Source: Spisula solida (Eukaryota > Mollusca > Bivalvia > Venerida > Mactridae). Taken from it: 64,000 nt of DNA. The notes beneath the pieces were generated by a model. The model was not told where the DNA came from. It did not search any database and saw nothing but the letters and a program-made list of their open reading frames with translations. This document shows positions 7,601 through 10,600 of this stretch, piece after piece. Position 1 is the first letter of the stretch. Every line of letters starts with the position of its first letter. The translations under genes and the position numbers were made by a program. The DNA is taken from assembly GCA_947247005.1 (NCBI GenBank), contig OX365950.1, positions 49,948,761 to 50,012,760 on the forward strand, written 5' to 3'.

Positions 7601-10600
7601 TATATAATGATATTGTGAAGTGGGGATGCTTTAAGGTGCACCTGTCCTAACATATTCAACTGGTACTTGTTCCAAACACGGGGACCGATTTCAAGCACAC
7701 ATATGGGTTCTGGCAACATGGACTGGGTCAGAGCTCAAGGACTGGTTTCGATCAGAGACTGGTTCTGAGTTCAGAGACTTATTTCAAGCATACAGACTGG
7801 TTCTGGCAACATGGACTGGGTCAGGACTGGTTTCGATCACAGACTGGTTCCGAGTTCAGAGACTGGTTTAGAAAAATAACTGCTACCAGTAGATTAGTAG
7901 ATATATGTTGCATGTGTTCTATATGTATGATCAGGCGTAGTATTACAGTAATGGCATCATCAATCTAAGTGGATTTTATAGAATGTGAAGCTATGGTGTT
8001 ATGTAATCCTTGAAATTCACTTACCGTGTTATAGATGGATGTTGATGCCGGCAAGTTTACACTGAACAAACCCATTATGTTGTCATAACTAATTTCCTAG
8101 ATTTCTTAAAAGTTGTAGTATTATCTCATATCCATTATTATCAATTGGCAATGTGTCATTTTGTATTTTGATAGAGAGATAAAGCTGTTATAGATTTCTG
8201 TCGGAACAACAACATGGCTCTGTATCAAATAATAAAATTGTTATTTGATAATGTACTGATATTTATGAATATTCATGAAGTTTCAGATAGATATTGTATG
8301 ACTATAATCGTACAAATCTTGTTAAATTGTGTATATAGTGTGGAAATCTTAACCTGAACCTCATAAACTCTTGTTAGCATAATCATGTCTCCCCCATACG
8401 ATATTGTTTTTGTGCTGGATGTCTGCCTGGATCTCTTCCACACTTGTTCTCCTTAATATGACCAGGACGATTTCAATATTTTGAAACCGGTAAATCATTG
8501 GTATGAAATCGAATCGAACCGGTTAATCAGCTGCAATGTTGAAAATTATTTTTGTTTTATGATGACCATATCAATGTACTTGCATGTGTTTATTTTATCC
8601 TTCGAGGCATTCAATACCAAAATAAAATTAGTATATGTTAAATATGATCATACATGGATTAATGTATCACATGTTACCCAAACAAACCTAACTAGTTTGC
8701 TTGTTTATGTGTCGATCAATACATTCAGGCATATTGTTGTCAAAGATTTATTGTATGCATTAACATACAATTTAATGGCATTGTAGGATGTGTTTTGTTT
8801 TAGAACAATTAGCAGTTTTGTAATATTGAAACCAGTTTCACCTTGCTATCGAATCATATCCGATTAACCAAGTAATCGTCCCGGTCCTACTCCTTAACCA
8901 TTGGTCTAATGTCAAAGAAACTTCACATGAATAGTTGGTACCAAACCTAGTTGTGCATATTGTCAGGAATATTTGGATGATTATTGCCAGAGTTTTGTCT
9001 CTTAGATGGTAAAAAATGAGGTCCCATATTTTTGTCTGCTATTCAGTCTGTATGCTTTCATAAAAAGAACATATTAGGAATATGCACAAGGTGTAATACA
9101 AACACAAATCTTGAGGACCGATGATGCATGATATTCGTGTAGAAATTGATGTATTCTTGACAATTCATACATAAAGGTCAGGATTAGGTTAATATCTTAG
9201 GACTATGCTAACAAACAGCTGGTTCACTCTATTATTTTCTTTAAAACTGGTGGTTGGATAGAAGATGATTGCTATCACATGTTTGACTTTTCTTGTAGGA
9301 AAGAGTTTGGCTTTGAGAAGTTTGTGCCGCCCAGTATACGTGAGAACATGTTTAACTTTTCTTGTAGGAAAGAGTTTGGCTTTGAGAAGTTTGTGCCGCC
9401 CAGTATACGTGAGAACATGTTTAACTTTTCTTGTAGGAAAGAGTTTGGCTTTGAGAAGTTTGTGCCGCCCAGTATACGTGAGAACATGTTTAACTTTTAT
9501 TGTAGGAAAGAGTTTGGCTTTGAGAAGGTTGTTCCGCCCAGTATACGTGAGAACATGTTTAACTTTTCTTGTAGGAAAGAGTTTGGCTTTGAGAAGTTTG
9601 TGCCGCCCAGTATACGTGAGAACATGTTTAACTTTTCTTGTAGGAAAGAGTTTGGCTTTGAGAAGTTTGTGCCGCCCAGTATACATGAGAACATGTTTGA
9701 CTTTTATTGTAGGAAAGAGTTTGGCTTTGAGAAGTTTGTGCCGCCCAGTATACGTGAGAACATGTTTGACTTTTATTGTAGGAAAGAGTTTGGCTTTGAG
9801 AAGTTTGTGCCGCCCAGTATACATGAGAACATGTTTGACTTTTATTGTAGGAAAGAGTTTGGCTTTGAGAAGTTTGTGCCGCCCAGTATACATGAGAACA
9901 TGTTTGACTTTTATTGTAGGAAAGAGTTTGGCTTTGAGAAGTTTGTGCCGCCCAGTATACATGAGAACATGTTTGACTTTTATTGTAGGAAAGAGTTTGG
10001 CTTTGAGAAGTTTGTGCCGCCCAGTATACATGAGAACATGTTTGACTTTTATTGTAGGAAAGAGTTTGGCTTTGAGAAGTTTGTGCCGCCCAGTATACGT
10101 GAGAACATGTTTGACTTTTATTGTAGGAAAGAGTTTGGCTTTGAGAAGTTTGTGCCGCCCAGTATACGTGAGAACATGAAGGTGAAGGATCTACGGAAGG
10201 TGTTGGCACAATGTCTGAAGATGAACCAGAACCTGACGGCCCCGGGACAGAAACAGCTGACAGCATTACAGGCTAAACTACATTATATGAAGATTGTTAG
10301 TGAACTTAAAACGTTTGGAAGTCGAGTCTTCATGGTCACATTGTTGGTAAGACTTCAGCTTATTCGTAAAAATTATTGCTCAGTCTTGTCCTAAATTTGA
10401 CCAAACTGACATAATTTTGTCAAACCAACCTAGATATGGTCCTACCCATAATAAGTTTGCCATAAGCCCCTTTAACTTTGACCAATCCACTTGAATTTGG
10501 CTCAACATACCTATGTTAGGCCAAGTCCCATTTCAAACATGGTTCACAAATAAGTAACTTTACACTGCCTTTTAAAAACGTCATGCCTATCACAATTTTC

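What the first reader, a model, noticed from the sequence alone, without database searches (positions are those of the whole stretch)
9279..10175. Thirteen tandem in-frame 3' splice sites feeding one FERM-domain exon
Seen: a 69-bp unit repeated 13 times spans the intron/exon boundary of exon e6, so each copy carries its own polypyrimidine stretch, AG and the exon start. 69 is divisible by 3 and there is no stop in the coding frame, so exon e5 can join any of the 13 acceptors and keep frame, inserting 0-12 copies of a 23-residue block at the start of the F2-lobe segment [10 protein letters not shown]. Known: spliceosomes often use the first AG after the branch point. Only copy 1 has a non-repeated branch-point region upstream, which would favour the longest product. 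Inference: this could be a length-variable, splice-tunable and population-polymorphic insertion in a membrane-binding domain, or a tolerated array in which only one acceptor works.
Basis: partly seen in the sequence, partly recalled or inferred. Interest (0 to 1): 0.88.

Follow-up and report, generated by a model that had tools for sequence, protein, structure and literature searches.

The report
Thirteen tandem splice acceptors, one clam exon
In a surf clam's scaffold-protein gene, a short repeat copied the splice site at the start of one exon thirteen times without breaking the reading frame, giving a natural experiment on how cells choose among near-identical splice sites, although most probably only the copy next to the exon body matters much.

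Summary
A 69-bp unit is repeated 13.0 times (9277-10173) across the intron-5/exon-6 acceptor of an FRMPD3/4-type (FERM-PDZ) gene of a surf clam, almost certainly Spisula solida; only one locus was found. Every copy has the same TTGTAG|G acceptor, all in frame with exon 5. It is a young minisatellite: 2.7% mean copy divergence, 5-bp microhomology at its edges, in a genome where comparable arrays cover 5.6% of a 190-kb sample. What is odd is where it sits. The closest protein found (Mactra antiquata) lacks the insert, and 119 of 119 scorable homologues have no gap from 8 residues before to 20 after the junction, which falls inside an F2-lobe helix. Open frame alone proves little: 10 of 13 other intron tails of the gene are open too. 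I expect mainly the exon-proximal 13th acceptor to be used, by exon definition (220-nt exon against 1,048 nt for the first), with minor in-frame leakage, as in the mirror-image human ABCA7 VNTR whose unit carries a splice donor. The opposite (first acceptor) is not excluded; human data show an upstream preference, and no transcripts could be examined. New variant of a known kind: VNTRs carrying a splice site.

The parts
9277..10173 (+). 69-bp tandem array, 13 copies; each unit = last 22 nt of intron 5 + first 47 nt of exon 6
   Evidence: TRF and in-register listing; found only here in the held genome
10174..10178 (+). ACATG, 5-bp microhomology between the intron-side and exon-side breakpoints of the unit
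   Evidence: 2218 of 298160 random position pairs in the window share 5 or more bases (0.74%)
7420..7556 (+). exon 5 (donor AGA|GTAAGT), codes the FERM F2 residues up to KTV(E)
   Evidence: tblastn of Mactra antiquata P0001, splice boundaries
9299..10346 (+). exon 6 if the first acceptor is used: 1,048 nt, 12 extra blocks of 23 residues (276 aa)
   Evidence: sequence
10127..10346 (+). exon 6 if the 13th acceptor is used: 220 nt, no insert; identical in protein to Mactra antiquata
   Evidence: 73 of 73 residues identical to P0001 377-449
9210..9298 (+). unique end of intron 5 upstream of acceptor 1, with YUNAY-type candidates TGCTAAC (-88), GGTTCAC (-73), GTTTGAC (-13); upstream AG at -35
9340..9345 (+). 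cryptic donor TAC|GTGAGA (copy 1; same in copies 2-5, 7, 12, 13); in copies 6 and 8-11 the GT is AT (CATGAG)
   Evidence: 3.9 against -1.5 bits on the gene's donor matrix; the one combination translated (acceptor 1 - donor of copy 2 - acceptor 13) shifts the frame to a stop
11240..11317 (+). exon 7 (downstream neighbour)

Best explanation
A microhomology-mediated tandem duplication (ACATG) copied the last 22 nt of intron 5 and the first 47 nt of exon 6 of an FRMPD3/4 orthologue; slippage or unequal exchange then expanded it to 13 copies. Because 69 is divisible by 3 and the intron tail happens to be open, no acceptor gives a frameshift by itself, so selection did not purge the array. The spliceosome, recognising exon 6 across the exon from its donor at 10347, mainly uses the exon-proximal 13th acceptor and makes the insert-free protein; the other copies act as intron, with low-level in-frame leakage to the nearest upstream acceptors (1-4 blocks). 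Shown: array, frame, microhomology, one locus found, insert-free orthologues, insertion inside a conserved helix. Inferred: duplication mechanism, acceptor usage, absence of function.
For: Array, 5-bp edge microhomology, 5 variable columns with 4 replacement and 1 silent, matching neutral expectation (77% replacement, 20% silent, 3% stop). Minisatellites (period 20 or more, 5 or more copies) cover 5.6% of 19 sampled loci (190 kb) and 4.4% of the window. One FRMPD locus found (17 matches on one contig, tiling the query). Insert-free Mactra antiquata protein, 97% identical over the FERM domain. 119 of the 120 listed homologues (of 1471 found) cover the junction; none has a gap from -8 to +20, and gaps of at most 3 residues occur at -9 to -13 in 13. 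Junction inside a helix, mean pLDDT 95 for residues 221-230. Both flanking introns over 250 nt; acceptors 9-13 give exons under 500 nt, the size limit quoted for long-intron exons. In human ABCA7 a 25-bp VNTR whose unit starts with the exon-18 donor uses mostly the exon-proximal copy; one-unit retention is about 2% (those transcripts are NMD targets, so the figure is a lower bound).
Against: No transcript data. Human 3' splice-site pairs 20 nt or more apart prefer the upstream site overall; long flanking introns only reduce this (PMC9225289 section 9). Copy 1 keeps the unique upstream context, and its TTTTCTTGTAG tail resembles that implied by P0123 (LFSCR), whereas copy 13 has a C-to-A change in the pyrimidine tract; P0139 has YFYCR, so the ancestral base is uncertain. 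Acceptor 13 is weak on the gene's matrix (-0.3; leave-one-out values of 14 other acceptors -9.4 to 13.1, median 7.5). That matrix rests on 14 sites and the exon-definition rules are from human genes.
Confidence: 0.55

Rival explanations
1. Acceptor 1 is mainly used (first acceptor transcribed, native upstream context), so the normal clam protein carries 12 blocks (276 residues) inside the F2 lobe.
For: Upstream preference for 3' splice-site pairs 20 nt or more apart; only copy 1 has the unique flank; frame open throughout.
Against: 1,048-nt exon between long introns; no insert in 119 of 119 scorable homologues near the junction; the insert is aromatic-rich (6 of 23) and its single-sequence fold has pLDDT 45.6 (a single-sequence model is weak evidence).
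Confidence: 0.15
2. Several acceptors are used at appreciable levels, giving a ladder of isoforms differing by 23 residues, possibly length-polymorphic between animals.
For: Near-identical acceptors (scores -0.9 to 2.2); all in frame; no excess RNA structure hiding any (z 1.2 to 1.8 towards less stable); adjacent identical copies suggest recent copy-number change.
Against: Strong conservation of the insertion site; exon-size constraint.
Confidence: 0.2
3. The array damages the gene: cryptic donors in the units pair with later acceptors, shifting the frame, so this allele is a partial null carried at low frequency.
For: TAC|GTGAGA in 8 of 13 copies scores 3.9, within the range of the gene's donors (-3.2 to 10.9); the one combination translated runs into a stop.
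Against: Such a product needs an internal exon plus a further acceptor; five copies have lost the donor; the rest of the coding sequence examined is intact.
Confidence: 0.07
4. Assembly artefact.
For: Tandem arrays are a known trouble spot; the raw reads could not be checked.
Against: About 0.9 kb is short against HiFi reads (31-fold coverage, QV 62.8 in PMC11101916; that read length exceeds 0.9 kb is general knowledge); copies differ in a non-uniform pattern.
Confidence: 0.03

Closest known systems
Human ABCA7 intron-18 VNTR (PMC5954066; passages and section 21 read)
   Same: A minisatellite that starts at an exon boundary and carries a canonical splice site in its unit; the exon-proximal copy is the canonical site and one-unit retention occurs at about 2%.
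   Different: Carries the donor, not the acceptor; 25-bp unit, so retention shifts the frame; 298-10,678 bp alleles; its unit lies in the intron, whereas here the unit includes 47 nt of exon and every use is in frame.
Tandem acceptors of the NAGNAG kind (PMC3250501; search listing with the start of the abstract only)
   Same: Alternative in-frame 3' splice sites of one exon.
   Different: Three bases apart against 69; at such short spacing the choice falls in the second step of splicing (9 nt or less), whereas sites 20 nt or more apart are set at first recognition (PMC9225289).
Novel introns by tandem duplication, and intron sliding, in Drosophila (PMC2891723; passages)
   Same: Tandem duplication changes an exon-intron boundary in a conserved gene; a multiple of three permits alternative splicing.
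   Different: There an exonic AG/GY proto-splice site is duplicated and a copy becomes an intron; here an existing acceptor is duplicated 12 times and no new donor-acceptor pair in frame arises.
FRMPD4/Preso FERM domain, PDB 7byj
   Same: Best solved-structure match to the predicted FERM region, E 7.9e-95.
   Different: No insertion at the E|K junction in that alignment.

Membership tests
FRMPD3/4 (FERM and PDZ domain) orthologue | FERM region closest to FRMPD proteins | tested here: met
   P0001 'Frmpd3p' 97% identity, E 1.7e-219; 7byj E 7.9e-95; Pfam FERM_M 8.3e-20 and RA_2 9.9e-11
FRMPD3/4 (FERM and PDZ domain) orthologue | WW and PDZ exons upstream | tested here: inconclusive
   P0001 residues 27-168 match C8:49916880-49923124, upstream of the window on the same strand, but those exons were not scanned against Pfam
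Minisatellite / VNTR | head-to-tail near-identical units | tested here: met
   13 copies, 98%
Minisatellite / VNTR | copy number varies between individuals | not testable with these tools
   alternate haplotype and reads not held
Splice-site-carrying VNTR (ABCA7 kind) | unit contains the canonical splice site of an adjoining exon | tested here: met
   acceptor in each of 13 units; intron 5/exon 6 boundary supported by alignment to P0001
Splice-site-carrying VNTR (ABCA7 kind) | array changes mRNA isoforms | not testable with these tools
   no cDNA
NAGNAG tandem acceptor | two AGs three bases apart | tested here: not met
   spacing is 69
Intron gain by tandem duplication | duplicated unit gives a new donor-acceptor pair spliced in frame | tested here: not met
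   a cryptic donor exists in 8 of 13 copies, but the combination translated shifts the frame; splicing itself untested

The most novel reading that the evidence does not exclude
The 13 acceptors are used combinatorially, so one gene makes FERM domains with 0-12 extra 23-residue blocks whose number depends on tissue and on the polymorphic repeat length: a splice-tuned, evolvable insertion in a synaptic-type scaffold.
Probability: 0.08. Interest if true: 0.82.

Novelty: new variant of a known kind. Interest (0 to 1): 0.42.

Why it matters
Thirteen almost identical acceptors, 69 nt apart, all in frame and feeding one exon, form a natural competition assay: one long-read cDNA experiment would tell whether order of transcription, native branch-site context or closeness to the downstream donor decides acceptor choice in a mollusc. 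It also shows how a minisatellite can invade a conserved coding boundary without breaking the frame, and suggests that a minisatellite-rich clam genome should hold further cases.

Tried and rejected
Rejected: a special open frame (10 of 13 other intron tails of the gene are open). Selection for keeping the frame: with five substitutions the neutral chance of no stop is already 0.86. RNA structure hiding acceptors: three stretches fold less stably than most of their shuffles (z 1.42, 1.84, 1.22). A structured repeat domain: single-sequence AlphaFold of the array product, mean pLDDT 45.6; it draws a regular helix-helix-strand pattern in each 23-residue block, but at that confidence it means nothing. 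A backup paralogue: none found.

Led nowhere: protein search with the 12-block insert (7996 candidates, none at E <= 0.001). That is a weak negative, because no single-copy homologue came through either and candidates were limited to 318-1013 aa. The third search returned 40 proteins of 91-289 aa; the pattern found exactly one copy of the exon-6 start in 29 and none in 11, never two. A read-through of all 13 copies (397 aa) would have been too long for that search. Literature searches for an acceptor-side array listed no such case; the library is partial and I read listings, not all papers. The BRCA1 partial exon duplication (PMC11839443, passages) was looked at: one extra copy of acceptor and donor, predicted by software, not an array.

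Full report
Source. The held genome has 931,988,947 bases in 36 contigs and the window is C8:49948761-50012760. The sizes of the 13 large contigs I saw (C1-C6, C8-C14) lie within 0.02 Mb of chromosomes 1-13 in Table 2 of the Spisula solida genome note (PMC11101916, section 5). The total differs by 0.12 Mb and two sequences, which I cannot explain; S. subtruncata fits worse (930.86 Mb, 151 scaffolds, PMC11249531 passages). So the species is inferred, not proven. That assembly rests on 31-fold HiFi data with QV 62.8.

Gene. Exons read from the window match Frmpd3p of another mactrid, Mactra antiquata (P0001; 97% over 345 residues), exon by exon, including a 21-nt microexon (QARCAET, 12399-12419; read from the sequence against P0001). 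The best solved structure is the FRMPD4 FERM domain 7byj. In the genome, P0001 gives 17 matches, all on C8 and tiling the query once.

Array. Thirteen copies of 69 bp span the last 22 nt of intron 5 and the first 47 nt of exon 6. The two ends of the unit share ACATG; 0.74% of random position pairs share 5 or more bases (2218 of 298160), which suggests, without proving, a microhomology-mediated first duplication. Five columns vary; mean pairwise difference is 2.7%; adjacent copies differ by 0-3 bases. Four of the five variants replace a residue and one is silent, as expected without selection (77% / 20% / 3% stop). Comparable minisatellites cover 5.6% of 190 kb sampled at 19 places, so the array itself is ordinary for this genome; its position is not.

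Frame. From exon 5 every acceptor continues the same frame, and the intron-derived part reads MF(N/D)F(S/Y)CR. This is less remarkable than it looks: 10 of 13 other intron tails of the gene are open in frame.

Relatives. Of 1471 homologues, 120 were listed; 119 cover the junction and none has an insertion or deletion from 8 residues before to 20 after it; 13 have gaps of 1-3 residues further upstream. P0027 does not cover it: its alignment starts exactly at the junction. Among 40 shorter proteins, 29 show exactly one exon-6 start by my pattern and 11 none; by eye 24 of the 29 have a lead-in that is not exon 5 and that I take for read-through of the intron tail. P0123, [31 protein letters not shown], looks like a single-copy relative with a similar intron tail. 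These are proteins; I saw no DNA of a relative. In a model of a cephalopod homologue (P0024, 33-row alignment) the junction E224|K225 is inside helix 220-227, mean pLDDT 95 for residues 221-230.

Which acceptor? On a matrix from the gene's 14 other acceptors the 13 score -0.9 (copy 1), 1.7 (copies 2, 3, 5, 6), 2.2 (copy 4) and -0.3 (copies 7-13); leave-one-out values of the 14 run from -9.4 to 13.1. The matrix cannot separate first from last. Each copy has TTRAC at -13 (YUNAY scan of five copies). For acceptor 1: transcribed first, native upstream context, and an upstream preference in human pairs of 3' splice sites 20 nt or more apart. For acceptor 13: introns of 1,742-2,570 nt and 893 nt on either side, so exon definition, which reduces that upstream preference and disfavours exons over about 500 nt (passage of PMC9225289); only acceptors 9-13 give exons under 500 nt (496, 427, 358, 289, 220). 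The closest natural parallel, the human ABCA7 VNTR whose unit begins with the exon-18 donor, is spliced mostly at the exon-proximal copy with about 2% one-unit retention (I read '14 and 2%, respectively' in the order in which the two frameshift events are listed, and both are NMD targets). I also weigh that an insert of 276 residues in a site unchanged from clam to vertebrate would probably harm the protein. Hence acceptor 13, with leakage, at 0.55.

Side products. Eight of 13 copies hold TAC|GTGAGA, a donor scoring 3.9 (gene donors -3.2 to 10.9 leave-one-out); in copies 6 and 8-11 the GT is lost. Acceptor 1 - donor of copy 2 - acceptor 13 shifts the frame to a stop; by arithmetic the same holds for any such pair, since the piece removed is 28 + 69m nt. 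This could be a mild cost of the array.

Verdict. A real, striking, probably non-adaptive feature: a splice-acceptor-bearing minisatellite. It is a new, acceptor-side and in-frame variant of a known kind. All statements on splicing are inference; cDNA decides.

Noticed in passing
window 11690-12247: A second array in the same gene: 46-bp unit, 12.1 copies, in the intron after exon 7, each unit ending in an acceptor-like CTATTACAG (11 scored, 3.6-5.6, above all 13 array acceptors of exon 6). Joined to exon 7 the first one scored would reach a stop within 12 codons, so these must normally be ignored.
   Followed up: partly
window 12399-12419: A 21-nt microexon (QARCAET) with a weak acceptor (-9.4 on the leave-one-out matrix) about 150 nt downstream of that array; present in the Mactra antiquata protein.
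   Followed up: partly
window 52151-53239 and 62961-63998, minus strand: Two similar long open frames; the first matches Pfam HSP70 weakly (23 bits), the second resembles it by eye and was not scanned: perhaps a local duplication of an HSPA12-like gene (that name is recalled).
   Followed up: partly
window 62001-62073: tRNA-like match just over the Rfam threshold (29.3 against 29 bits) that ARAGORN does not call; perhaps a tRNA-derived repeat.
   Followed up: no
window 15067-15240 and 62039-62251: Nearly the same open-frame stretch ([20 protein letters not shown]) at two places: a dispersed repeat.
   Followed up: no
window 54459-55460: 145-bp tandem array, 6.9 copies.
   Followed up: no
P0027 (Biomphalaria glabrata): The one listed homologue not covering the junction aligns from exactly the exon-6 start onwards: perhaps a gene-model variant at the same intron.
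   Followed up: no
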